DNA of 64,000 nt from Owenia fusiformis. Lineage: Eukaryota; Annelida; Polychaeta; Sabellida; Oweniidae. The stretch spans positions 10,486,196-10,550,195 of the forward strand of contig CAIIXF020000004.1 of NCBI GenBank assembly GCA_903813345.2, in the 5' to 3' direction. The translations under genes were made by a program, and so were the position numbers. Under the pieces are notes generated by a model. It had not been told where the DNA came from, did not search any database, and saw only the letters and a program-made list of their open reading frames with translations. This document shows, one piece after another, positions 11,891-58,425 of this stretch. Position 1 is the stretch's first letter. Every line of letters begins with the position of its first letter.

Positions 11891-12065
11891 TTCATTCCCG
11901 GGCTTCTCTTTCATTAGAGAGATTGTTTAAGACTAAGAAATGATTGGACGATAGAAACCTGAAATTATCCAGAAAGAAATATCATTTGTCTTATATCAAC
12001 TATTGCTTTTTCATTCTCTATTTCGTTCTCCATAAAATGAAGTTAAGGGAACTTTGTCTTGAATT

Positions 12066-13617
12066 AGTCTCTACTTGCCCCATTATCTACTTGCCCCATT
12101 TTTTACAGGCCCATATCCAGGATTTGCCAAGGGAGGGTTCAGTTTTCAAAAATTTCCAGGGGGGGTTCACTTGAGAAGTGCTCAAAATGGTGAAAACTGC
12201 ATGATTTTGAAAGAAGGTGGGGGGGGGGTTCACCCGTACCCTTTGAACCCCCCTGGCTACGGGCCTGTTTTACTTGCCCTAAAATCTACTCGTCCCATAA
12301 TCTGCATTCCCCATCACTTGCTTGCCCCATTATATACTTGCCCCATAATCTACCTGCCCAATTATCTACTTGCCCCATTATCTACTTGCCCACTTATCTA
12401 CTTGCCCCATTATCTGCTTGCCCAATTATCTACTTGCCCACTTATCTGCATTCCCCATCACTTGCTTGCCCCATTATCTACTTGCCCCATTTTTTACTTG
12501 CCCCAAAATCTTCTTGCCCCGTTATCTGCATTCCCCATCACTTGCTTGCCCCATTATATACTTGCCCCATAATCTACCTGCCCAATTATCTACTTGCCCC
12601 ATTATCTACTTGCCCACTTATCTACTTGCCCCATTATCTGCTTGCCCAATTATCTACTTGCCCAATTATCTACTTGCCCACTTATCTGCATTCCCCATCA
12701 CTTGCTTGCCCCATTATCTACTTGCCCCATTTTTTACTTGCCCCAAAATCTTCTTGCCCCGTTATCTGCATTCCCCATCACTTGCTTGCCCTATTATATA
12801 CTTGCCCCATAATATACTTGCCCAATTATCTACTTGCCCCATTATCTACTTGCCCACTTATCTGCATTCCCCATCTCTTGCTTCCCCCATTATCTACTTG
12901 CCCCATTTTTTTTACTTGCCCCAAAATATACTTGCCCCGTTATCTGCATTCCCCATCACTTGCTTGCCCTATTATATACTTGCCCCATAATCTACTTGCC
13001 CAATTATCTACTTGCCCACTTATCTGCATTTCCCATCACTTGCTTGCCCCATTATCTGCATTCCCCATCACTTGCTTGCCCCATTATCTACTTGCCCCAA
13101 AATATACTTGCCCCGTTATCTGCATTCCCCATCACTTGCTTGCCCTATTATATACTTGCCCCATAATCTACTTGCCCAATTATCTAATTGCCCAATTATC
13201 TACTTGCCCAATTATCTACTTGCCCAATTATCTGCATTTCCCATCACTTGCTTGCCCCATTATCTGCATTCCCCATCACTTGCTTGCCCTATTATATACT
13301 TGCCCCATAATCTACTTGCCCAATTATCTACTTGCCCAATTATCTAATTGCCCAATTATCTACTTGCCCAATTATCTACTTGCCCAATTATCTGCATTTC
13401 CCATCACTTGCTTGCCCCATTATCTACTTGCCCCAAAATATACTTGCCCCGTTATCTGCATTCCCCATCACTTGCTTGCCCTATTATATACTTGCCCCAT
13501 AATCTACTTGCCCAATTATCTACTTGCCCAATTATCTAATTGCCCAATTATCTACTTGCCCAATTATCTACTTGCCCAATTATCTGCATTTCCCATCACT
13601 TGCTTGCCCCATTATCT
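12066..13617. repeat. 16-bp satellite (CTTGCCCMATTATCTA)n
   Basis: About 85 units of a 16-bp repeat with core CTTGCCCMATTATCTA, interspersed with a 32-bp variant carrying GCATTCCCCATCACTTGC. Higher-order blocks recur (for example around 12440-12560, 12680-12800 and 12935-12990). The unit lacks stop codons and is not a multiple of 3, so all three + frames stay open for long stretches with the same 16-residue periodic peptide. The 474-codon frame at 12338-13762 is therefore a by-product of the array and not a gene. Confidence 0.95.
12106..12267. mobile_element. CAGGCCCGTAGCC-type MITE inside the 16-bp satellite
   Basis: Ends CAGGCCCATATCCAGG and CCTGGCTACGGGCCTG form a terminal inverted repeat. 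TTTTA is duplicated on both sides (12101-12105 and 12268-12272), and the satellite continues on each flank. The internal sequence is in the opposite orientation to the copy at 62890-63087. No coding region; superfamily not assigned. Confidence 0.85.
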
Positions 13618-13968
13618 GCAGTCCTTCTCAAATGTAACCCAACTTTCCAACTTCCTGTGGTCAGAAAACTCAACTGGAATAAATAATGAAATATTGAGAA
13701 ATGAAAATATTTCCAAATTTATCTTTTCGACCAATGATATCAATTTCCATTTGAAAAGTTGAGTTGACGATTATGTAGAGATCTTCCCATAAAACAGGTA
13801 ACTATTTTCCCTTCTTTGGTAAATTGCGAGGTAGTGATTTGAGAAAATAAAGGAAAACATTGCTACTTCCGCATTGCTAATTTTGAATCCTGTCGCTGAA
13901 TTTTTATACATTTTGGAAATCTAGGTATATTTGAATATTTTTATGCAAAACTGAAACAAATGGACACA
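13618..13968. other. No gene recognised
   Basis: Non-coding flank of the satellite. Nothing repetitive or gene-like was seen. Confidence 0.4.
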
Positions 13969-14190
13969 GTCAATCCACATCCACGTGGAACCCATGCCAC
14001 GAGGATCCTCGTGGAATCCACATGAAATCATTTGAAATCCACATGGATTTTAGATCCATGTGGAAATAGCGTGGATCCTCGTGGAAATTACCAATGTGGA
14101 TCCGCGTGGTCTTCTCAATCCATGGTGATCCACGTGGGTGAAATCCATGTGGATTCACGCTGTTTTCACATGTATTCCGCGTGGATCGGA
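13969..14190. repeat. Palindromic ATCCACGTGGAT-rich cluster
   Basis: About 220 bp densely packed with variants of the self-complementary 12-mer ATCCACGTGGAT (CACGTGG, CACATGG, CATGTGG, CGCGTGG, plus GAGGATCCTCGTGG). It can be read as a short-period tandem array of near-palindromes able to form many alternative hairpins. The minus-strand open frame here is a by-product. Confidence 0.75.
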
Positions 14191-17456: not shown

Positions 17457-17501
17457 ATTTGCATCAAAGAAGGGTACCTCTTAAAACAGTCAAACTTCCA
17501 G
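17457..17501 (+). CDS. Type II diacylglycerol kinase, PH-domain exon A
   Basis: This 45-bp exon reads ICIKEGYLLKQSNFQ. It follows a pyrimidine-rich TTTTTCCAG acceptor and ends at CAG|GTGAGT. The peptide matches the first beta strand of the N-terminal PH domain of DGK delta/eta (IKEG.LLKQ..(S)FQ). Exon end phase is 0, and it joins directly to the exon at 20182 to give the diagnostic FQRWRRRYFKL. Type II DGKs phosphorylate diacylglycerol to phosphatidic acid; this PH domain helps membrane targeting. The upstream start exon was not recognised in the window. The intron that follows is filled by a repeat array which has copied the last 15 bp of this exon with its donor site four times. Confidence 0.85.
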
Positions 17502-18016
17502 GTGAGTTCATTTTTATTTTTTTATTATCCCATCGAACAAAGTTCGGAGGGATATAGGGAACACCGTACGTACGTCCATCCGTATGTAGTCCGTACGTCC
17601 GTCCGGGCAATAACTCAAATACCGTTGGCCCGATTTTGTTCATATTTTGTACATATATACCCTATGGGGGTAGAAGTTCTGCTCGAAAGCCGATTTTCAA
17701 AATGGCCGCTCATTTCAAAATGCTGGCCATTTTAGTGCCGAATTTACTGTAATTTAGGTGCAATATGTAAAACTGTAATAGTAATATGTTTTAGATGTAA
17801 AAAGATTATATAGGACATTAATAAAGCTAAAAATGTAGATATTAAAGAAGCACATGGCAGCCATCTTGAAAAATGGCGGCCTTTACTAGTTATTTTACGA
17901 TTTTTGCTGTAACTCGAAAAGTAGTAGAGCAATTTTGTTCATATTTGGTATGTGAATACTATAAACATTGCACACTGTCTAATGACACTTTTTGTAGAAG
18001 GCGGCCATTTTGAAAA

Positions 18017-18068
18017 AAAACAGTCAAACTTCCAGGTGAGTTCAGTTTTATTTATTTATTATCCCATC
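18017..18068 (+). pseudogene. Captured DGK exon-A end plus splice donor, copy 1
   Basis: AAAACAGTCAAACTTCCAG|GTGAGTTCA and the following intron start through ATTATCCCATC are copied from 17484-17530. The copy is fused upstream to a GGCCATTTTGAAAA unit and downstream to TTAACGTATTTTAC. The donor GT is at 18036. Confidence 0.9.
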
Positions 18069-18191
18069 TTAACGTATTTTACTATAACTCGAAAAGTAGT
18101 GGAGCGATTTTGTTCATATTTGGTATGTGAATACTATAAGCATGGCACACTGTCTAATGACACTTTTTGTAGAAGGCGGCCATTTTGAAAA

Positions 18192-18243
18192 AAAACAGTC
18201 AAACTTCCAGGTGAGTTCAGTTTTATTTATTTATTATCCCATC
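18192..18243 (+). pseudogene. Captured DGK exon-A end plus splice donor, copy 2
   Basis: Same fusion as the copy at 18017, 175 bp further on, with an intact CAG|GTGAGT whose GT is at 18211. Confidence 0.9.
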
Positions 18244-18896
18244 TTAACGTATTTTACTATAACTCGAAAAGTAGTGGAGCGATTTTGTTCATATTTAGTA
18301 TGTGAATACTATAAGCATGCCACACTGTCCTATGACACTTTTGAAAGAAGGCGGCCATTTTGAAAAATGGCCGCCATTTTAACATTTTTTACTATAACTC
18401 AAAAAGTAGTGAAGCGATTTTGTTCATATTTGGTATGTGAATACTGTAAGCATGGCACACTGTCTAATGACACTTTTGGTAGAAGGCGGTCATTTTTCAA
18501 AATGGCCGCCATTTTAACGTATTTTACTATAACTCGAAAAGTAGTGGAGCGATTTATTTATATTTGGTATGTAAATACTATAAGCACGGCACACTGTCTT
18601 GTGGCATTTTTGGTAGAAGGTAGCCATTTTGAAAAATGGCCGCCATTTTAACTTTTTACTATAACTTGAACAGTAGTGGAGCGATTTTGTTCATATTTGG
18701 TATATGAATACTATAAGCATGGCACATGGTTTAATGACACTTTTGGTAGAAGGTGGCCATTTTGAAAAATGGCTGCCATTTTTGCTATATACTTTGTTTG
18801 TAAAAAGGCCATATTGTTCATATTTGGTATGTGAATACTATAAACATTGCACACTGTCTAAAGACACTTTTTGTTGAAGGCGGCCATTTTGAAAAA

Positions 18897-18948
18897 AAAA
18901 CAGTCAAACTTCCAGGTGAGTTCAGTTTTATTTATTTATTATCCCATC
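18897..18948 (+). pseudogene. Captured DGK exon-A end plus splice donor, copy 3
   Basis: Counterpart of the 18017 copy in the second 880-bp block; donor GT at 18916. The A-run at the junction is one base longer. Confidence 0.9.
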
Positions 18949-19072
18949 TTAACGTATTTTACTATAACTCGAAAAGTAGTGGAGCGATTTTGTTCATATT
19001 TGGTATGTATATACTATAAGCATGGCACACTGTCTAATGACACTTTTTGTAGAAGGCGGCCATTTTGAAAAA

Positions 19073-19123
19073 AAACAGTCAAACTTCCAGGTGAGTTCAG
19101 TTTTATTTATTTATTATCCCATC
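19073..19123 (+). pseudogene. Captured DGK exon-A end plus splice donor, copy 4
   Basis: Counterpart of the 18192 copy in the second 880-bp block; donor GT at 19091. All four copies keep a consensus donor but have no acceptor immediately upstream. Confidence 0.9.
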
Positions 19124-19740
19124 TTAACGTATTTTACTATAACTCGAAAAGTAGTGGAGCGATTTTGTTCATATTTAGTATGTGAATACTATAAGCATGC
19201 CACACTGTCCTATGACACTTTTGAAAGAAGGCGGCCATTTTGAAAAATGGCCGCCATTTTAACATTTTTTACTATAACTCCAAAAGTAGTGAAGCGATTT
19301 TGTTCATATTTGGTATGTGAATACTGTAAGCATGGCACACTGTCTAATGACACTTTTGGTAGAAGGCGGTCATTTTTCAAAATGGCCGCCATTTTAACGT
19401 ATTTTACTATAACTCGAAAAGTAGTGGAGCGATTTATTTATATTTGGTATGTAAATACTATAAGCACGGCACACTGTCTTGTGGCATTTTTGGTAGAAGG
19501 TAGCCATTTTGAAAAATGGCCGCCATTTTAACTTTTTACTATAACTTGAAAAGTAGTGGAGCGATTTTGTTCATATTTGGTATATGAATACTATAAGCAT
19601 GGCACATGGTCTAATGACACTTTTGGTAGAAGGTGGCCATTTTGAAAAATGGCTGCCATTTTTGCTATATACTTTGTTTGTAAAAAGGCCATCCATGGCT
19701 CTTCGATGGGATTCGCTAGGCTTTGGCGTTGCCGTTGTTC

Positions 19741-19920
19741 TGGTTTATTTATTTATTTATCCATTTATTTATTCCATTTATCTAGTATTTGTTTATTTAT
19801 TGATCTACTTACTCATTTATTGTTTTTTATTCATAATTTGATTATTTATTGATTTACTTATTTATTTGTTTATTTGATTTATTTACTTATTTCATTATTT
19901 AAGTTTGTACTTTTGTGTTT
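19741..19920. repeat. ATTT-type microsatellite
   Basis: Imperfect TTTA/TTTATTGATTTAC repeats adjoining the end of the repeat family copy; low complexity. Confidence 0.85.
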
Positions 19921-19929
19921 TAATCATGA

Positions 19930-20172
19930 CCTTCTATGTTATTATCAAGACCTTTTGAACTACAATTACGACCTTTTGTGTTAAAATCATTACCTTTTAT
20001 GTTAAAATCATTACCTTTTGTGTTAAAATCATTACCTTTAATGTTAAAATCATTACCTTTTATGTTAAAATCATTACCTTTTATGTTAAAATCATTACCT
20101 TTTGTGTTAAAATCATTACCTTTAATGTTAAAATCATTACCTTTTATGTTAAAATCATTACCTTTTGTGTTA
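19930..20172. repeat. 21-bp minisatellite reaching the exon B acceptor
   Basis: About eleven units of TTACCTTTTATGTTAAAATCA, with TATG/TGTG/TAATG variants in alternation. The last unit runs straight into TTACCTTTTGTGTTATATTTCCAG, so the pyrimidine tract of the splice acceptor for exon B is built from the final repeat unit. A 21-bp unit keeps one frame open, giving a spurious periodic peptide. Confidence 0.92.
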
Positions 20173-20181
20173 TATTTCCAG

Positions 20182-20250
20182 AGATGGAGGAGGCGTTACT
20201 TCAAATTAAAAGCCCAGGGAAAAAAGCTGTACTATGCAAAAGACACTAAG
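20182..20250 (+). CDS. Type II diacylglycerol kinase, PH-domain exon B
   Basis: A 69-bp, 23-codon, phase 0-0 exon reading RWRRRYFKLKAQGKKLYYAK then DTK. It lies between TATATTTCCAG and AAG|GTTGGT. It matches the conserved second and third strands of the DGK delta/eta PH domain ([21 protein letters not shown].K), with a two-residue longer turn after KLK. The basic cluster WRRRYFK is the usual phosphoinositide-facing part of such PH domains. A damaged partial copy of this exon lies about 180 bp downstream. Assignment to DGK rests on this exon plus exons A and C joining in frame. Confidence 0.9.
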
Positions 20251-23163: not shown

Positions 23164-23244
23164 TCTGTAACATTTGACGAGATTGATCTTATAGATGTCT
23201 CTGTAGCAGAATGCAGCACGAAGAATGTCAACCACAGTTTTCAG
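23164..23244 (+). CDS. Type II diacylglycerol kinase, PH-domain exon C
   Basis: An 81-bp, 27-codon, phase 0-0 exon: [20 protein letters not shown] then NVNHSFQ, after TTGTTTTCCAG and before CAG|GTAGGG. It aligns residue for residue with the DGK delta/eta PH segment S.IFDEVDL.DASVAE.STKN.NNSF. The family continues with an (I/V)ITPFRKL block; no such exon was recognised downstream in the window. Either the next intron exceeds 40 kb, and then contains the two secreted-protein genes, or the gene is broken. Exons A to C keep an open frame with no damage. Confidence 0.9.
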
Positions 23245-26740: not shown

Positions 26741-26841
26741 GAAAGCTCAATCACAAGCTAAATACCATGTATCAATTTAAAGTTGATTGATCAACAAAAT
26801 TATTTGGTAGAGCTTAAACCAAATCTGCAAAATTTTCTACA

Positions 26842-28930
26842 ATGGCACGCAACATTGGAGCACTGGCAATAATAGGCAGCCTTCTTATAATCACCATAGC
26901 AGCAAGTATGACAAAAATGGAAGAAAAACCTGTCGTGAGTAATGAAGAAGCGAAGAAAAACCTTGAAATGATTGAGTATTATGCTAATAAAACAGAGCTG
27001 ACACCATACGAAAGTTACATTATAAAAACAGGCATTAAAAGAATGAAACGTGCCGTTGCTCCAGTTGAGGGTGAAAAACTTGAAATAGTTGGAGGGAGAA
27101 ATGAGTAAGTCTATTTATAATTTTTAATTTTATTTGTTGAGTTTATTCATTTATCATCCGCTGCAAACATTTCATCAAATTTTCCAATTGCCCTATGTGC
27201 AGAATTAGGCAGAATCAACAATTGGAAAGTAACATTTTCAGAGTCTAAAATTTCCGAATATTTTCAGCTCGTGTCATTCATAGTCTGACCTCTAAAAGTC
27301 TGTAGTAATCAAACTACATTGTTTAACTGTTTATTGTTTGTATGCCTGTCAAAACTGCCTATTGTCTGAACTTATTATGATAATATCTGTTTTAAGAGGG
27401 TCTATAACTGTAATTTACCCCATTTGTACCAGGTCCTACTTTTGCACTGTTTTTGAGATTTTTTAACATTATCACCAAGTGTACCCGCAGAATGGTGTCA
27501 TTTTTCCATTGTGAATCTCATTATTTTCATCTATTTCAGCCATTGGTGTTGTAAGGAGGATCCCGTGGTTGGAAAGAACTACAGCACTCGCAGTGTGGGA
27601 GAACTGGTGATGGTCACCAGATCACGTAGAAGATTCACTAGATGTGGTTTCGGTGGCTGGGAAAGATGTTCCGTAGATGTGACTTATTTGAGGTAAGAAC
27701 TATTATGAGAAATATGGAATTTGAATGTTAAATGATGGAAAGAGGCTTTCAAAAGATACTCTTTGGACGTAAAATTTGTTGAGGATGCTTGACGTTTGTT
27801 TACTTTTGTCCGGTTGTACCCATAATTTCTCCTTTTAACATTGTTTTCTTATACGGAAAATTATATTTTGAAAATACAAGTAAAATACTACTCTTAGTAA
27901 CAGGGTGTCCACAAAAAAGTATACTTCAAAGCCAGGATACTAGAATTCTGAGCATTTTTAAAAAAAAATAAGGGAGCAGTAAAAGGCCTAGTTTGTCTTT
28001 CATCCAATACTGAATCTAAACAAGTAGATTCATGTTGGACAGTATTTCTAGAATCCATTTCAATAGAAAGAATAGGGGTCCTATACACAGTACATGCAAC
28101 TTGCTTTTTAGAAGTTTTTGTTGTCTCTACTGCTCAGGTCTCAGTTGAACCAATTTGCAGGCCCATTTTGGAATAGGTATACTTTTTTTTTGTGGACACT
28201 TTGTATTATGCCTTTACCTATTTGGACCTATCCTTACAAAATAACTTATTACTTTTCAGTCAGGAGATGAAGTATAAGTCAGTACTGGACACATTAGAGA
28301 TCCCCCAGGCCGAATGGGTTCATGGATGTCCCGAAGAAAAACTCTTCTGCTGTAGAGGATTCATTCTAAATGCTGATGTAAAGAACTGCATGAGTGAGTA
28401 TTTATTGTGCCTCCATTCTATATTGATTTTATTGCATTTTAAGGTTTTGAGCAGAGGTTTTGGTCCTTAAAATTGAGTAGTGGTCCTTGGGACCAGTAAA
28501 AATTCATGTAAAGTGGTCCTAAAGAAATGTTAGTCACCAAGTAGGACCACTTCATTTCAATTTTTACTGGTCCCATGAAAAAAAAATCAAGAAATTATTT
28601 GTGCCACAAATTGAAGCAGCCTCTTTGCATGATTAAATTGAATTTCTTCTTGAGTGAATAAGCTAGGAATTACTAGAATTAATTAGTAAAATCACATCTA
28701 CCTCTCTCTGGATCAAAAATGGAGGTCTGCGTCCAGTATCTCGATTTGTACCAGACAAAAGTACTGGACGCGTTTCTACTCCCTGACAGTGTTAATTGAC
28801 AACACATTTCTTTCCAGCCCAGGCAGAGGTGGATTCCCTGATTACAATGCTTTCAAGACATGGTGGAGAAGCCTTGTGTCTCATGCGCATGTTTGGTGTC
28901 TTAGACAGAGAATGTCCACTGCAGAAATAG
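26842..28930 (+). CDS. Secreted 10-cysteine proprotein 1, EMI-like (four exons)
   Basis: Exons 26842-27104, 27540-27692, 28260-28393 and 28818-28930 (stop TAG) splice with GT/AG boundaries and phases 2, 2, 1 into 220 residues. Residues 1-21 are a signal peptide. A prosegment follows with EEAKKNLEMIEYY, a sequon NKT at 49-51, and a furin-type RMKR at 67-70. The downstream part has ten cysteines: HWCC (91-92), RCGFGGWERC (123, 131), HGC (162), CCRGF (169-170), NC (182), LC (204) and EC (216). C..GW..C then a Y-rich stretch, W and CC.GF resembles the EMI domain of extracellular matrix proteins, but this is only a pattern match. Function unknown. A TATA box lies upstream. Intron 2 holds a MITE and intron 3 an inverted repeat. 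The prosegment is strongly conserved in the paralogue at 32973-35321. Confidence 0.88.
27901..28203. mobile_element. Mariner-like MITE in intron 2 of secreted gene 1
   Basis: Left CAGGGTGTCCACAAAAAAGT and right GTATACTTTTTTTTTGTGGA then CACTTTG form an inverted pair of about 28 bp. About 300 bp without coding capacity. The end is 57 bp before exon 3, so its T-run may contribute to the intron's pyrimidine-rich 3' part. A clean TA duplication was not seen. Confidence 0.75.
28489..28575. repeat. Inverted repeat in intron 3 of secreted gene 1
   Basis: Arm GGGACCAGTAAAAATTCATG then TAAAGTGGTCCT pairs with AGGACCACTTCATTTC then AATTTTTACTGGTCCC around a 20-bp loop. Could form a stable hairpin in the pre-mRNA; probably a small foldback element. 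Confidence 0.8.
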
Positions 28931-32455: not shown

Positions 32456-32884
32456 TTGATATTAATAAAATCTTAGTTTTGAATCTCAGCTAATTACCAA
32501 TAGTGATTTGTCTTTGACCTATGACTGCTGACCTATACTGGCGATTACTAGAGTGCTGCTAACTCGATAAAAGGCTGGCGCTGGCTAGAATTGTCTATGG
32601 TTCTAGCCAGGATAAAGATACCAGTTCTTCAACTCGACAATGGGAAGAACTGCTCTACCTAAGTGACTAATATGTCATGATATGACATCTAAAAGAGTCG
32701 ATAAAAGATATATATATATATGTAGTGTCATTGTTTTCTATCCACGGTCTTATAGTCTGAATTTTTAAGGCTGGATATAAGAGTTGTATTTCAATGAGAG
32801 TGAAGAAGAATAGCTTTTGCAAAGGGTATTGTGGATGTGGTATCATTTTTCTAAGAAAAAAGACAAAACATATTATGAGTTTGG

Positions 32885-32891
32885 TATAAAA
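32885..32891 (+). promoter_or_regulatory. TATA box of secreted gene 2
   Basis: GGTATAAAAGGAACAC about 88 bp before the ATG at 32973, matching the GGTATAAAAG of gene 1. Confidence 0.7.
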
Positions 32892-32972
32892 GGAACACAG
32901 GCATACATCTTTTACCATTCACACCTTGCCATCAACCAAGAATCATCAGCGCACAATCTGCAATCACGAAAA

Positions 32973-35321
32973 ATGGCATGCAAAATTGCAGCATTATCAA
33001 TATTTGGATGCTTTGTCGTAGTCACCATGGCAGCTGAAATGCGACAAGCAACGGAAAAGGAAAATTTTGTAACTGATGAAGAAGCGAAGAAAAACCTTGA
33101 AATGATTGAATATTATGTCAACAAAACAAAGATGACACCATATGATAATTTCATCATTTCGTCTGGTTTAAACAGAATAAAACGTAATGCAGTCCCAGGA
33201 AGCAATGAGTAAGTTCTCTTAATATCATTTTACACTGTCGATCCTCTCGATTACGCTGGAACCATTAGGTAGGTACAATTTTTCCTTATTTCACACGTTG
33301 TAGGCATTTTTATCACAAACGTGTATCAGTATCATATGTTTAAGATTAAGAAAATGTACACATTTCTGAACAAATAGGTCAGAAGACGGAGGAATCGTTG
33401 ATTCAATTCCTCACTTAAGTTACATTAACGGTATTTCGAAAAATAGTTTCGGTAACCAGCGTAATCGAGTGGATCACCAGTGTTTTAAGTCCACCCACCA
33501 ACTTATTCCATATGTCTCAGTCAAAGTAGAATACATATATTCTCATAATAAAAATTGCCATTGAAATTTAATTCAGATCTGGAAATGTGTTCTTTGACAT
33601 CCATGCGTTACCAATAAGTTTTTTCAAATCCTCTTTTGGATTTAATTTTAGACCCTTCTTTACAATCTTCAAATGATTGCTATAATTTATTTTGGTAACA
33701 CTTCAACACTTATAATGATTTGTTATACATATAACAATTTCAATACTCTGTCTTAACATGGCTTTTAAAGTTTCATCAATAGTCTTTGAATTCACTTCCA
33801 TGCATATTTGATATTTCACAATTATTGAAAGTATATTAAAAATGATTTTTAGGTATTTTACCATGTAAAACTGGATCTTGTTTTATGATTTTAAAATGTA
33901 ATAGCCCATTTCTTCTATGATATAACTCTTTGCCTCAGGCACTGGTGTTGCCAAGAAGACCCTGTGTTTGGTAAGGAGTACAATACTCGAACAGAGGGAG
34001 TGTATAAACCAGTCACAAAGATCCGTAGAAGTCAAACTAAATGTGGCTTTGGTGGATGGAAAAGATGTGTAGTAGACAGGACCTATACGACGTAAGAACT
34101 ATTCAAGATTTTGATTTTCAATTAATATTCCTTTTGTAATATGATATTTTTCTGCCATTTGCAACATGTGATCGCAATTTACATATAATATTTCCAATCA
34201 ATTTAATATCTAATATTTTATTATCCCATCTAATGGAGTTTTTGGGTGGTATAGAGAAACAACCCTGTCTGTCCATATGTTCCATAGGAAATAACTCAAT
34301 TTTTTATTATGTTTTATACTTATACTCGTATTCTATATGAGCAAAAGTTTTTTCTTGAAAGCTTACTATGAAACTTATGAATTGTGATATTAATGTTTTA
34401 ATGCAAAAATAATTCATGGTGTTAAGTCCACTCCACAATCTTAGTATTAAGTTGAAAATGGCAGCCGTTTAACATTTATTGGCCCAATCCCAAAAAGAAG
34501 AAGATCAGTTTCATTGATATTTTATATGCAAATATAGTTGGAATCATGACAGATTGTACTGTGTCAATTTGGATAATGTGGTACTCATTTATATTTCTCA
34601 GCCTGATTTACTGTTTTGTTCAAATTTGTTTTAACCTTAAATCATTGTTTAGGATGTTGTGTCTTTTTCTAGTGTCTGGTTGTCTGGTTTTATTTTGTAA
34701 TTTTTCTTACTTGAACTTTTAAATTATTTGCTTTCGTTTTTTTCAGTTTGGAGGTGACCTACAAAAGTGTTATTGACACAAGAGAATTTCGTCAAAGTGA
34801 ATGGACCCAAGGATGCCCCAGCCTTAAAGTCACTTGCTGTCGGGGTTTCATTTTGAATAAACCTGTTAATCAATGCATGAGTAAGTTCTATTCCATTTTT
34901 CATTTTTATATTCATTTGAGTTATGCCACCTCTACAATGCAGTAAAAGAATTTACCCACCAGTGCCAAACCGGCACAGTTCTGATTTTGAAAGTTAATAA
35001 CTTTTATAGATAAAGAAAGAACAATGAAATAGCATACATCCTAGAAGGAAACTAGCTCCATTGATTTCGCAGGACTATATCTGACACAAGATACAATTTT
35101 TGTTCTAATTTTTTAAAGTTTATATTGGTAAGCTTGCCTCTTCTATTTTTCTTTGAATTTTTAGGAACTAAATCTGGCGATTGTGCTGACATATTGTGTT
35201 TCTCTTTTCAGCTATTGATGAAATCGAGGCTCTAGGACGAGTGCTAAAACAAAATGGAGGAGAAGCTCTGTGTCTCATGCAGATATTAGGTGGAGGAACA
35301 TGTCAAATGAATAAAAAATAA
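32973..35321 (+). CDS. Secreted 10-cysteine proprotein 2, EMI-like (four exons)
   Basis: Exons 32973-33208, 33939-34091, 34747-34880 and 35212-35321 (stop TAA) give 210 residues. Exons 2 and 3 are exactly as long as in the paralogue (153 and 134 bp) and phases are again 2, 2, 1. The open frame extends upstream, but I start at the ATG before MACKIAALSIFGCF, since it gives a signal peptide and aligns with gene 1. The prosegment keeps EEAKKNLEMIEYY.NKT..TPY and ends in RIKR (68-71), an RxKR convertase site. The ten cysteines after it match those of gene 1: HWCC, KCGFGGWKRC, QGC, TCCRGF, QC, LC, TC. The last exon shares (N/H)GGEALCLM. The C-terminus is otherwise divergent. Likely an extracellular protein; EMI-like by pattern only. 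Function unknown. Confidence 0.88.
34218..34300. repeat. Diverged 5' fragment of the GGCGGCCATTTT family
   Basis: TTTATTATCCCATCTAATGG with GGTATAGAGAAAC and AAATAACTCAA echoes the 5' end of the family, within intron 2 of secreted gene 2. Heavily mutated. Confidence 0.5.
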
Positions 35322-39720: not shown

Positions 39721-40987
39721 GTCTTTATATTCTGCAAGATTTAATGGCTGACAACTATCTGAAATTGCCTTATTCTAAAAATCTCACATGGTAAATGAGG
39801 TTATCTCTTGTTTTGATTCAACCCCCAATTCAAAAGTTTCGATGTTGTATTTTTCTTTTCAAAATTGAGAGAAATTGGATGAATTTTGTAAGATTTAGAT
39901 TCACAAAATATTTAGATGATTGCCTATATTGTATGAAAATGTATGAAAATCTATTAGTTCATTCAAATTTTTAAGAGGTATTGTTTGAATTTGTTCTTGA
40001 GCAGACGGATATTTTGCAGAATAATGAGGCTGCCTCATATGTTTACTGGTCACCTAGCTCTGTTCTCACTTGATAAGATCTGTTTTGAAATGGGAAAGCC
40101 ATCCGGTTGGTTATTATCCCATCGAACGAAGTTCGGAGGGATATAGGGAACGCCTCCGTCCGTCCGTCCGTCCGTCCGGGCAATAACTCAAATACCGTTG
40201 GCCCGATTTTGTTCATATTTTGTACACATATACCCTATGGGGGTAGAAGTTCTGCTCGAAAGCCGATTTTCAAAATGGCCGCTCATTTCAAAATGGTGGC
40301 CATTTTAGTGCCGATTTTACAGTAATTTAGGTGCAATATGTAAAACTGTAATAGCAATATGTTTTAAATGTAAAAAAATTATAAAGGACATTAATAAAGC
40401 TACAATGTAGATATTAAAAAAGCACATGGCAGCCATCTTGAAAAATGGCGGCCTTTACTCGTTATTTTACGATTTTTGCTGTAACTCGAAAAGTAGTGGA
40501 GCGATTTTGTTCATATTTGGTACGTGAATACTATAAACATTGCACACTGTCTATAAGAAACTTTTGGTAGAAGGCGGCCATTTTGAAAAATGGCCGCCAT
40601 TTTAACGTATTTTACTATAACTCGAAAAGTAGTGGAGCGATTTTTTCATATTTGGTATGTGAATACTATAAGCATGGCACACTGTCCTATGACACTTTTG
40701 GTAGAAGGCGGCCATTTTGAAAAAAATTTTGAAAAATGACCGCCATTTTAACGTATTTTACTATAACTCGAAAAGTAGTGGAGCGATTTTGTTCATATTT
40801 GATATGTGAATACTCTAAGCATGGCACATTGTCTAATAAAACTTTGGGGAGTAGTCGGCCATCTTCAAAAATGGCCACCATTTTTATGTGTTGTGTGTTA
40901 TTTTACAAGTACATGTGTGCGATTTTTCAAAAATTTTATAGGCGGCTACTTAAAAGCATATTATTTCTTCTGATGACAACTTGGCTA

Positions 40988-51985: not shown

Positions 51986-53248
51986 GATTTTTTCAGTCAG
52001 GCAGAATTCTATATGAAATCATTTCCAACTAAATGACAGTGTTATCCCCTAGGAAATGAGATAAAACCTTTATTGTGTAATTTCGTGAAAAATTGCTCAT
52101 TTTGTATCATTATACTTTTATCTATTGGCATAAACAAGAAAAGGGATTGTCTCCAAATGATAAAAACAAGTTAAGGGATTTTGTCCAAATGCTATAGATT
52201 AGTTAAGGTATTACATTATATATATGTGTTAAGATATTATATTTCAGCTAATTTCATTGTAAAACATTTTACAAAGAAAATATTAATACATATGTCCAAA
52301 ATGAATGTGAGATTTAGGTTATTTTTTCTTTCTAATAAGCTACTTTGTAAAATGACAGCAAAGTGTTTTTCTGTTACAAATGCCGACTTTGAGTCTAAGT
52401 GAATTGAGCTTCTCAATTAAAGAAGATTAGGAGACAATGAGGTAGCACTAGGCGAGTCAATTATTGCAGAATAGAGAATTATTTGAAGTTCTTTGTCTAC
52501 TCATCTTTTAGATGTGACAAGGGAGTTGAGTGTAATTTGTTAAAAATTTCTCACTCTTTGAGCGCACATTTTCTTTTAAAGAGGCTCTATGCCATAGGAT
52601 AGCACAATCAAGACCCCTCTGGACTTTTTTTGCATATTGAGTTTCACCTATCTACTTATCAAGGAAGAAGTCCCAAATCCCCCTCTTTCAGTGTTAATTT
52701 TGTGATTGTACTGGCCGATTTAATTATTTTCGAAGAAATTAATTCAATCTGAAGTTTAAATATTCTGGGAAAGTCCTCCTGTTATCTGATTGGTCGTTGA
52801 ATTTGTTTATCATAAACCTGATTGGCTGCCTGGTTCAAGGCGCTTGTGGGCGCTTGTGTGACTCAATGGGGATTCCCCTCAAATGTACCAATCATGACGT
52901 TTCACAGGAGGTTGAATGATGTAGAATTATAAATATTAGCTTTTTAATGTGAAAAGAATAAATGATCGATAAAATAACTGCATCGAATCTTAAGAGTGCA
53001 GCTGAGTTTGAGGTTATGAAAGGGTAACATGCAATATAAGGAATGTATAGATCGGCTAATTAGAAATACCAAAATAGCAAATCGCTCAGGTATCTCATTG
53101 ATGAGGTCATCAGAAATAGCAGATTTCTGGCATGAAATATCCTATTCCAGTCAGTCTTGACATTCATGGGTAACTCCATGTAATAATACCATGAGGCGTT
53201 CAGTACATCTTAATTTATAATAAAGGAATAAATAATGATAGGCCATTC
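51986..53248. other. No gene recognised
   Basis: Mixed AT-rich DNA. CCTGATTGGCTGCC and TCTGATTGGTCG elements near 52790-52830 resemble CCAAT motifs on the opposite strand but no gene follows. Confidence 0.4.
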
Positions 53249-54179
53249 AATATAGTGAAATTCAGCACGAGTTTCACAGAATTTCATACAAAGCATGAAC
53301 CAAAGGTGAAAAGTGAAAGCATTGTTTCAAGAAGGGGAATAGAGGTCTATGAAATAACCAAATTGTTGTTATTTTCGCCATTCCCAATTGTCATGTCACA
53401 ATACAACACAATACATAGGTCCTCGGATGCAGATTGCATAATGAACAGTCACTCTTCTGTCGAGGATTAGAGAACGGCTGTTCTGCATTCTGATTGGATA
53501 AGAGATTTTGACATAACAAGGTCATGTTTGAATTAGTATTTTCTCAAATCTCTGTGATTCAATATGGTGAAATTCAGCATGAGTTGGACAGAATTTCATA
53601 CAAAGCACGAACCGAAGGTGAAAAGTGAAAGCATTGTTTCAAGAAGGGGAATAGAGGTCTATGAAATAACCAACTTGCTGTTATTTTTGCCATTCCCAAT
53701 TGTCATGTCACAATACAACACAATACATAGGTTCTCGGATGCAGATTGCATAATGAACAGTCACTCTTCTGTCGAGGATTAGAGAACGGCTGTTCTGCAT
53801 TCTGATTGGATAAGAGATTTTGACATAACAAGGTCATGTTTGAATTAGTATTTTCTCAAATCTCTGTGATTCAATATGGTGAAATTCAGCATGAGTTGGA
53901 CAGAATTTCATACAAAGCACGAACCGAAGGTGAAAAGTGAAAGCATTGTTTCAAGAAGGGGAATAGAGGTCTATGAAATAACCAACTTGCTGTTATTTTT
54001 GCCATTCCCAATTGTCATGTCACAATACAACACAATACATAGGTTCTCGGATGCAGATTGCATAATGAACAGTCACTCTTCTGTCGAGGATTAGAGAACG
54101 GCTGTTCTGCATTCTGATTGGATAAGAGATTTTGACATAACAAGGTCATGTTTGAATTAGTATTTTCTCAAATCTCTGG
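53249..54179. repeat. 312-bp tandem repeat, three copies
   Basis: Units begin at about 53249, 53561 and 53873 with TCAATATGGTGAAATTCAGC. Copies 2 and 3 appear identical over the whole unit; copy 1 differs at a handful of sites and at its first bases. Each unit contains an open frame of 71-72 codons (53255-53470, 53564-53782, 53876-54094) ending in IMNSHSSVED. The peptide has no recognised domain. The rest of each unit is AT-rich and includes TCTGATTGGATAAGAG. Purely tandem origin is enough to explain conservation of the frame. Confidence 0.93.
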
Positions 54180-54739
54180 ATTCATCCCTCTAGAAATAGC
54201 GAGACAGAGGACAGAGAGGGGGAATAACAAGAAATTGAATTTCTTGAGGGTCATCCCTTCACATAATCATATAGCAGTGAGGAGAACAGATGGGAGAGGG
54301 GGTAGGGTTGTGACGTAGCCTTACAAGAGATTGAATCAAGTCCCAAGAGTGGCCCTTCTAAATATAGAGGAGAGGTATATAGGCTAGTGGCAGAGCTTGG
54401 TCTCAAGCAAGTCTCAGGACTTCTGTTACTCATATATATTTAGCAGATCATGATAAAAAAGCTAAATCTATGGCAGATATAGTGCAGAATACAACTGAAT
54501 CCCACAGAGAGAACAAGTGCAATAAGGTTTTGCAAGTGTAATAAGGTTTTATGAATACCACTAATTTTTAAAGGAGTCCCGTCAAATCCCTTTAAATGTC
54601 TGTTGTTAAGCTCTAACCCAATCAGCATATGATTCAAGGAGACAGAGTGGTTTGTAGATTAACTCTCTCACCAAGTGATTTGCACTCTAAGTTAAAACCT
54701 CCCAAATAAATGCTGGGTAGTATGGTATTTTGAAATGGA
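54180..54739. other. No gene recognised
   Basis: Purine-rich segment (GAGAGGGGGAATAAC, GGAGAGGGGGTAGGG) with the two halves around 54180-54260 and 54280-54360 loosely similar, suggesting an old duplication. No gene seen. Confidence 0.4.
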
Positions 54740-57106: not shown

Positions 57107-58425
57107 ATCCAAGAACTTAATTTTCATGATATGTGAAAGAGATGATGGAACAACTTTGTATTTTACAACTGATAACATTTATACTAGATAATCCTTTAAA
57201 GGCCCCATATAAAGTTTAAACAGATCAACAATTTTTAATTCCATGATATGTGAAAGAGATGATGGAACAACTTAGTATTTTACAACTGATAACATTTATA
57301 CTAGATATCCTTTAAAGGCCCTATATAAAGTTTAAACAAATCAACAATTTTAAATTCCATGATATGTGAAAGAGATGATGGAACAACTTAGTATTTTACA
57401 ACTGATAACATTTATACTAAATATCCTTTAAAGGCCCCATATAAAGTTTGAACAGATCAACAATTTTAAATTCCATGATATGTGAAAGAGATGATGGAAC
57501 AACTTAGTATTTTACAACTGATAACATTTATACTAAATATCCTTTAAAGGCCCCATATAAAGTTTGAACAGATCAACAATTTTAAATTCCATGATATGTG
57601 AAAGAGATGATGGAACAACTTAGTATTTTACAACTGATAACATTTATACTAAATATCCTTTAAAGGCCCCATATAAAGTTTGAACAGATCAACAATTTTT
57701 AATTCCATGATATGTGAAAGAGATGATGGAACAACTTAGTATTTTACAACTGATAACATTTATACTAGATATCCTTTAAAGGCCCTATATAAAGTTTAAA
57801 CAAATCAACAATTTTAAATTCCATGATATGTGAAAGAGATGATGGAACAACTTAGTATTTTACAACTGATAACATTTATACTAAATATCCTTTAAAGGCC
57901 CCATATAAAGTTTGAACAGATCAACAATTTTAAATTCCATGATATGTGAAAGAGATGATGGAACAACCTAGTATTTTACAACTGATAACATTTATACTAA
58001 ATATCCTTTAAAGGCCCCATATAAAGTTTGAACAGATCAACAATTTTAAATTCCATGATATGTGAAAGAGATGATGGAACAACTTAGTATTTTACAACTG
58101 ATAACATTTATACTAAATATCCTTTAAAGGCCCCATATAAAGTTTGAACAGATCAACAATTTTAAATTCCATGATATGTGAAAGAGATGATGGAACAACT
58201 TAGTATTTTACAACTGATAACATTTATACTAAATATCCTTTAAAGGCCCCATATAAAGTTTGAACAGATCAACAATTTTAAATTCCATGATATGTGAAAG
58301 AGATGATGGAACAACTTAGTATTTTACAACTGATAACATTTATACTAAATATCCTTTAAAGGCCCCATATAAAGTTTGAACAGATCAACAATTTTAAATT
58401 CCATGATATGTGAAAGAGATTATAA
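57107..58425. repeat. 116-bp satellite, about 11 copies
   Basis: Units start at CCATGATATGTGAAAGAGAT about every 116 bp (57241, 57357, 57473, 57589, 57705 and on to 58401). Most differ by only one or a few bases. The variants AATTTTTAATTCC and GTTTAAACAAATC appear together at positions four units apart (57230-57350 and 57695-57815), so a 4-unit, ~464-bp block was itself duplicated. No open frame of interest. Confidence 0.95.

What the first reader, a model, noticed from the sequence alone, without database searches (positions are those of the whole stretch)
17457..19123. A DGK exon end with its splice donor is captured and amplified inside an intronic repeat
The last 15 bp of DGK exon A, its GTGAGT donor and about 30 bp of intron occur once in place and four more times (18017, 18192, 18897, 19073). 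Each copy is fused to units of the GGCGGCCATTTT family. Breakpoints fall at short shared sequences (AAAACAG on one side, ATTATCCCATC on the other), then a further 880-bp duplication doubled two copies to four. The intron therefore contains five consensus donors in a row, which could compete for U1 or act as decoys. It also gives a clear record of how satellite growth can pull in coding sequence.
Basis: seen in the sequence. Interest (0 to 1): 0.8.

Follow-up and report, generated by a model that had tools for sequence, protein, structure and literature searches.

The report
Copied splice donors in intron transposon
A mobile-element insertion next to an exon of an animal lipid-kinase gene copied the exon's end and its splice signal into itself once, and local duplications then made four copies, leaving five identical splice donors in one intron, probably a neutral accident.

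Summary
The end of DGK exon A, its CAG|GTGAGT donor, 22 bp of intron and the first 11 bp of the adjacent element (17483-17534) recur at 18017, 18192, 18897 and 19072. The core 24-mer occurs nowhere else in the 498-Mb assembly. The host repeat is a dispersed, non-autonomous, Helentron-like (HINE-type) element with about 135-bp internal units. The copied block includes the element's own 5' end, so capture followed insertion and happened in place. It starts at the apex of a hairpin in one unit and replaces most of its 3' arm, which fits a template switch at a stalled hairpin (AAAA shared on the left, imperfect CCAT on the right). A 175-bp unequal exchange and an 880-bp tandem duplication then gave four copies. 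All five donors are identical and are the five best U1 matches among 167 GTs. Using donors 2-5 would add a stop codon or a 38-nt frameshifting pseudoexon. Splicing effects, read support and polymorphism could not be tested. Such capture is known for other DNA transposons; donor amplification inside an element's array is a new variant. Most likely neutral.

The parts
17457..17501 (+). DGK exon A (ICIKEGYLLKQSNFQ, first part of the PH domain); the intron after it is phase 0
   Evidence: Reads in frame into exon B; joined peptide hits Pfam PH, E 1.2e-05
17502..17507 (+). authentic donor GTGAGT (CAG|GTGAGT)
17483..17534 (+). source block later copied: 19 bp exon, 22 bp intron, 11 bp element 5' terminus
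17524..19745 (+). HINE-like non-autonomous element: 5' terminus (A)TTATCCCATCGAAC, 3' terminus ..CGATGGGATTCGCTAGGCTTTGGCGTTGCCGTTGTTCTGGTT, inserted in a T/TTTA-rich tract
   Evidence: Termini defined from dispersed genome copies; end and flanks
17902..19662 (+). internal tandem array of about 135-bp units (175 bp where they carry the capture)
18017..18068 (+). captured block copy 1, donor at 18036
18192..18243 (+). captured block copy 2, donor at 18211
18897..18948 (+). captured block copy 3, donor at 18916 (one extra A on its left)
19072..19123 (+). captured block copy 4, donor at 19091
17937..18813 (+). first copy of the 880-bp tandem duplication
18816..19693 (+). second copy of the 880-bp tandem duplication
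17998..18035 (+). possible 38-nt pseudoexon 1 (acceptor ..CACTTTTTGTAG), frameshifting; equivalents at 18173-18210 and 19053-19090; the one at 18877-18915 (39 nt) has lost its AG
   Evidence: sequence only; no RNA evidence
20182..20250 (+). DGK exon B (RWRRRYFKLKAQGKKLYYAKDTK)
23164..23244 (+). likely next PH exon ([27 protein letters not shown]), between ..TTTTCCAG and GTAGGG
   Evidence: its likeness to DGK delta/eta is recalled, not computed

Best explanation
A non-autonomous Helentron-like (HINE-type) element inserted in a T-rich stretch 22 bp after the donor of a PH-domain exon of a gene that is most likely a type II diacylglycerol kinase. Later, replication or break repair in the element's array stalled at the hairpin formed by GGCGGCCATTT-TGAA-AAATGGCCGCC. 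The nascent strand switched at AAAA to the same-strand sequence 534 bp upstream, copied about 50 bp (exon end, donor, intron, element 5' end), and re-entered the array at TTAACG, past the hairpin's 3' arm. Unequal exchange between neighbouring units doubled [capture + unit] (175-bp step), and an 880-bp tandem duplication doubled it again. Shown: the anatomy, the uniqueness in this assembly, the element termini and the relative order of events. Inferred: the template switch and the stalling. Expected function, inferred: normal splicing uses the first donor because exon A is defined by its own acceptor and donor; the four copies are mostly silent, with at most occasional use as a 38-nt frameshifting pseudoexon.
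For: Five places in 498 Mb, all here. The captured block contains the element's 5' terminus; 26 of 26 complete elements, picked by fuzzy match to both ends, share exactly TTATCCCATCGAAC. The terminus fused to a unit core is found only at these four places genome-wide. The unit folds as an 11-bp hairpin, loop TGAA (-14.1 kcal/mol; the same units cut one base short, 10 bp, -11.6 by DNA parameters, z -4.0 and -4.7). The capture leaves the unit in its A-run, at the loop or first bases of the 3' arm, and the 11 bp TGGCCGCCATT are missing. The hairpin centre is lengthened at 364 places genome-wide (100 listed). An overlap of 4 bp or more arises in 3.0% of random junctions. U2a and U2b are identical, U1a/U1b differ at 2 of 124, U1a/U2a at 7 of 124; the 880-bp copies differ at 8 internal columns of 877. 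Microhomology, closeness to the source, post-insertion timing and internal breakpoints are what PMC8277862 reports for single-copy Pack-TIRs (12 of 22 passages shown).
Against: The right junction has no exact overlap (CCATC against CCATT). A unit reading GCCATCTTAACG, which would give one, was found at only 1 place in the genome, on another contig. The A8 run at the left junction assumes a long-A unit as the parent; a long-A unit in this window (40708-40757) folds less well (-8.4 kcal/mol, z -2.4). One event (templated insertion) cannot be told from two (tandem duplication, then deletion). No reads, no second individual and no related species were available. No RNA data bear on the functional statement.
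Confidence: 0.75

Rival explanations
1. Functional decoy or poison-exon array: the four extra strong donors, with upstream TTTTTGTAG acceptors, recruit the splicing machinery and promote retention of the intron or a non-productive isoform, lowering DGK output.
For: Donors identical to the authentic one and clearly the best of 167 GTs (-12.2 against -7.2 kcal/mol for the next). 3 of 4 copies have an AG, a pyrimidine run and CTAAT upstream, giving a 38-nt frameshifting exon with a stop 21 codons past exon A. Decoy exons with splice sites are reported to promote intron retention (PMC12017769, passages).
Against: No RNA evidence. 38 nt is short for an exon without enhancers (established knowledge). 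One of the four acceptors is lost. The copies are too young for a test of constraint: at 8 in 877, about 0.95 differences are expected between the duplicated captures (2 x 52 bp, own arithmetic) and 0 are seen.
Confidence: 0.1
2. Two-step rearrangement without template switching: tandem duplication of the 534-bp segment from AAAACAG to the first unit, then deletion from the duplicated element 5' end to the next unit; each step by end joining.
For: Gives the same product; both junctions are compatible with short-overlap joining.
Against: Needs two events, both with an end at the same hairpin. An intermediate could not be looked for, as only one assembly was available.
Confidence: 0.2
3. Assembly artefact: false tandem copies from repeat mis-assembly or haplotype stitching.
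For: Tandem repeats are error-prone; 0.9% divergence of the 880-bp copies could be allelic. Reads were not available.
Against: The capture-bearing units have diverged (U1a against U2a, 7 of 124); the 880-bp joint lies between non-equivalent unit positions, GGCCATA/TTGTTC; no second, single-copy version of the locus is in the assembly. Mis-assembly could add copies but would hardly create the fused junction.
Confidence: 0.07
4. The element carried the exon/donor fragment from elsewhere before insertion.
For: Helitron-like elements are known to capture gene pieces (general knowledge; touched on in passages of PMC8277862).
Against: No other place in the assembly has the 24-mer; the block matches this very insertion site including the element's 5' end.
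Confidence: 0.01

Closest known systems
Single-copy Pack-TIR capture by transposition-independent gap filling, with template switching (PMC8277862, passages read)
   Same: Host DNA captured in cis after insertion, internal breakpoints in the element, short microhomology, explained by stalling or breaks and template switching
   Different: Element here is HINE-like, not TIR; the block is tiny, spans an exon-intron boundary plus the element's own end, and was then amplified with the internal tandem units
Cg_HINE elements of the oyster (PMC7492417, abstract fragment and passages read)
   Same: Left flank with subterminal inverted repeat, complementary inverted repeat and microsatellite; central satellite-like repeats; right flank with subterminal inverted repeat and palindrome; dispersed
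   Different: Sequences were not compared; nothing on capture of a neighbouring exon is in the passages I saw (12 of 32)
Decoy exons in retained introns (PMC12017769, passages read)
   Same: Intronic exon-like splice sites that could engage the spliceosome unproductively
   Different: Here only sequence resemblance; no splicing evidence, and the sites are recent duplicates

Membership tests
HINE / non-autonomous Helentron | Subterminal inverted repeats of 12-15 bp near both ends | tested here: met
   ATCCCATCGAAC 2-3 nt from the 5' end in 26 of 26 and GTTCGATGGGAT 33 bp from the 3' end in 24 of 26 complete elements; 33 bp is a little under the 38-60 bp given for mite HINEs. In the DGK copy the 3' repeat reads CTTCGATGGGAT, 11 of 12. 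The elements were picked by fuzzy match to these ends
HINE / non-autonomous Helentron | Inverted repeat close to the 5' subTIR and a microsatellite in the left flank | tested here: met
   By eye: GTTCGGAGGGAT against ATCCCATCGAAC, 10 of 12, and CCGT repeats, in the two window relatives; the CCGT run is degenerate in the DGK copy
HINE / non-autonomous Helentron | Palindrome near the 3' end | tested here: inconclusive
   ACGC-TTTG-GCGT, 4-bp stem, in a relative; weaker than the 5-10 bp reported for mite HINEs; imperfect in the DGK copy
HINE / non-autonomous Helentron | Central tandem repeats, no coding capacity | tested here: met
   about 135-bp units; stop-to-stop frames starting inside the array reach 95 aa
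HINE / non-autonomous Helentron | No target-site duplication, insertion at TT / T-rich sites | tested here: inconclusive
   25 of 28 elements share at most 9 bp between flanks (mismatched pairs reach 13 of 756 tried); 3 of 28 (L005, L006, L029) share 21-44 bp. The two bases before (A)TTATCCC are TT in 15, TA in 8, TG in 2 and TC in 1 of 26; the first bases of the 3' flank are mixed
HINE / non-autonomous Helentron | Shares termini with an autonomous Helentron | tested here: inconclusive
   58 Helitron_like_N matches in the genome; these termini were not found in the 12 loci fetched, which cover 9 of the 58 places. 6 of the 9 were only about 3.6 kb long, and in the other 3 the long frame starts within 412 bases of the fetched edge, so the 5' ends were hardly covered
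Pack-TIR-like gap-filling capture | Source nearby, capture after insertion, microhomology at a breakpoint | tested here: met
   534 bp away; includes element 5' end; AAAA on the left
Pack-TIR-like gap-filling capture | Carrier is a TIR DNA transposon | tested here: not met
   Subterminal, not terminal, inverted repeats; no consistent TSD. It works like one; it is not filed as one
Decoy / poison exon | Spliceosome recognition or inclusion in RNA | not testable with these tools
   No RNA data
Type II diacylglycerol kinase | PH, C1, catalytic and accessory domains in one gene | tested here: inconclusive
   PH exons in window; C1 at C4:10565924 (E 2.4e-4), DAGK_cat at C4:10569227 (E 6.9e-4), DAGK_acc at C4:10585683 (E 3.1e-26) and 10586354 (E 4.5e-9, one stop in the matched frame), all + strand on the window's contig; no transcript joins them

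The most novel reading that the evidence does not exclude
The captured donor array acts as a decoy module: a transposon that copied its neighbour's splice donor and multiplied it now tunes retention or poison-exon inclusion of a DGK intron, a route by which hairpin-driven template switching writes splice regulation from the host's own signal.
Probability: 0.07. Interest if true: 0.7.

Novelty: new variant of a known kind. Interest (0 to 1): 0.4.

Why it matters
The locus preserves a readable order of events (insertion, hairpin-associated capture, unequal exchange, tandem duplication), so it shows how host exon sequence can enter a transposon-borne tandem array in place. It is also a natural test of how splicing handles five equal donors in one intron. 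If splicing is unaffected it is a clean example of donor redundancy being ignored; if not, it is a new origin for decoy sites.

Tried and rejected
Transduction from elsewhere: rejected, because the 24-mer occurs only here in the assembly.

General habit of the element to copy its flank: not supported. Of the 30 best-scoring loci, 26 held a complete element; L001, L015, L023 and L026 were dropped, as no complete element was delimited in the locus. With two window elements that makes 28; only the DGK one matches its own 1.4-kb flanks strongly (E about 5e-13, four rows; next best E 0.02). For the two window elements the ends used were 1-2 bases off those now given, which does not affect the result.

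Genome-wide exact patterns: element 5' end within 30 bp of a unit core, 4 places, all here; unit left part within 50 bp of an element 5' end, 5 places, of which 4 are here and the fifth (C5:21943838) has no host sequence between and was not followed. A unit variant giving exact right-hand homology: 1 place on another contig, so exact homology is not claimed. Lengthened hairpin centres: 364 places, 100 listed; all 100, read by eye, are built of the element's own sequence; the other 264 were not seen, and the four captures are among those by their length.

Autonomous partner: not found at 9 of 58 places, with poor cover of 5' ends. Solved structures: exon A+B peptide hits PH-domain chains, best E 0.0017, no DGK chain among the 38 listed. 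Literature: searches showed no report of donor amplification inside a transposon array in the held open-access library (two returned no paper; of the listed papers I opened only PMC8277862), so this does not show absence from print. PMC8819188 (passages) gave background only. One search was an empty scan of 11 bases of no use. One search's Pfam scan of seven window frames gave one sub-threshold hit.

Full report
Observation. The window lies at C4:10486196-10550195 of a 498-Mb assembly of 525 contigs. Exon A (17457-17501, ICIKEGYLLKQSNFQ) is followed by CAG|GTGAGT, a 2680-bp intron (17502-20181) and exon B (20182-20250). The joined peptide matches Pfam PH (E 1.2e-05, over its cut-off). A likely third PH exon lies at 23164-23244 between ..TTTTCCAG and GTAGGG. 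C1, DAGK_cat and DAGK_acc matches follow on the same strand of the same contig, the first two weak (E 2.4e-4 and 6.9e-4), the last strong (E 3.1e-26), so a type II DGK is the likely gene. The block 17483-17534 recurs at 18017, 18192, 18897 and 19072. Its 24-bp core is found at 5 places in the whole assembly with up to 2 mismatches, all here, with 0 for the control pattern.

What carries it. The intron holds an element from 17524 to 19745. A search with a relative in the same window (40113-40560) gave 65 matches from 40 scored of 2632 first-look candidates, so copy number is a lower bound. Of the 30 best loci, 26 held complete elements, defined by fuzzy match to both ends: 26 of 26 begin TTATCCCATCGAAC, with an A before it in 24; 24 of 26 have GTTCGATGGGAT 33 bp from the end; 23 of 26 end in CTGGTT. 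Subterminal inverted repeats, a nearby inverted repeat, CCGT microsatellite, central tandem units and, in 25 of 28, no flank repeat beyond chance match the description of HINE elements (PMC4067079 and PMC7492417, passages). The 3' palindrome is weak and no autonomous partner was found at the 9 of 58 places looked at, so this is HINE-like rather than a proven member.

Capture. The copied block ends with the element's first 11 bp, so it was copied after insertion. The normal unit reads GGCGGCCATTTTGAAAAATGGCCGCCATTTTAACG and folds as an 11-bp hairpin with a TGAA loop (-14.1 kcal/mol). Two such units of the window, cut one base short, give a 10-bp stem at -11.6 kcal/mol, z -4.0 and -4.7. In the fused units the sequence follows the 5' arm and loop, runs through A8 (A9 in copy 3) into CAGTC..., and resumes at TTAACG, so TGGCCGCCATT, most of the 3' arm, is gone. 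Long-A variants of the centre are common in the genome (364 places with a lengthened centre, 100 listed); in an A8 form the junction falls in the apical loop (-16.9 kcal/mol for a typed A8 unit), though the one long-A unit of this window folds less well (-8.4, z -2.4). The left overlap is AAAA; 4 bp or more occurs at 3.0% of random junctions. The right side shares CCAT but with one mismatch at the joint, and a unit that would make it exact was found at 1 other place, so it is best called imperfect. A template switch during replication or repair at the hairpin explains this in one event; duplication followed by deletion gives the same product.

Amplification. Units after captures 1-4 compare as follows: U2a = U2b (0 of 124), U1a/U1b 2 of 124, U1a/U2a 7 of 124. 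The 3' part of U1 (CTGTCTAATGACACTTTTTGTAG) matches U0; its first 53 bases match U2, as expected from unequal exchange in register. The 880-bp copies differ at 8 internal columns of 877. Their joint (GGCCATA/TTGTTC) lies between non-equivalent unit positions, so this step was not exchange between like units. The four copies agree with each other and differ from the source at 17511 and 17520; since the 3' flank is TATTTATTTATTTATCC, the copies may keep the older intron sequence (inference).

Rarity. Only 1 of 28 complete elements contains its own flank. The element 5' end next to a unit core is found, as an exact pattern, at 4 places in the genome, all here. The event is singular in this assembly as far as these patterns can show; captures with other ends would be missed.

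Splicing. All five donors share the same 11 bases and a U1 duplex energy of -12.2 kcal/mol; the next of 167 GTs is -7.2. Extension of exon A to donors 2-5 meets a stop at 17733. A 38-nt pseudoexon is possible at three copies (AG kept) and not at 18877 (AG changed to TG); inclusion shifts the frame and meets a stop 21 codons after exon A. Decoy exons that promote retention are reported (PMC12017769, passages), but nothing here shows such a role. By exon definition (established knowledge) the first donor should be used; I expect little effect.

Novelty and verdict. In-place capture by template switching is documented for TIR elements (PMC8277862, passages). A captured exon-donor boundary amplified within a HINE-like array did not appear in five literature searches (listings only apart from PMC8277862). 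I rate it a new variant of a known kind, with interest 0.4.

Noticed in passing
26818-28470 and 32814-34945: Two similar small genes or gene fragments (MARNIGALAIIGSLL.. / ..CCRGFILN and MACKIAALSIFGCF.. / ..CCRGFILN), by eye a secreted, cysteine-containing pair lying between DGK exons; one half (34715-34945) matches Pfam MAGP below cut-off (E 0.0044), the other three halves nothing.
   Followed up: partly
L005, L006, L029: 3 of 28 elements have the same 21-44 bp on both sides, against at most 13 bp in 756 mismatched pairs; the L006 repeat begins and ends with the same 8 bases, which suggests insertion into a pre-existing minisatellite.
   Followed up: partly
G000, 364 places: The hairpin centre of the unit is lengthened at many places, by the element's own sequence in the 100 listed, so the site looks unstable across the genome.
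   Followed up: partly
53245-54184 and 57117-58420: Very homogeneous tandem arrays (312 bp x 3.0, 98% matches; 116 bp x 11.2, 97%).
   Followed up: no
12271-13617: 16-bp array TACTTGCCCCATTATC, 84 copies, inside a 522-codon stop-to-stop frame (12194-13762); GC skew -0.45 over 12001-14000.
   Followed up: no
G000: 41 of 58 Helitron_like_N matches lie in open frames of 1491-3377 codons, many on short contigs.
   Followed up: no
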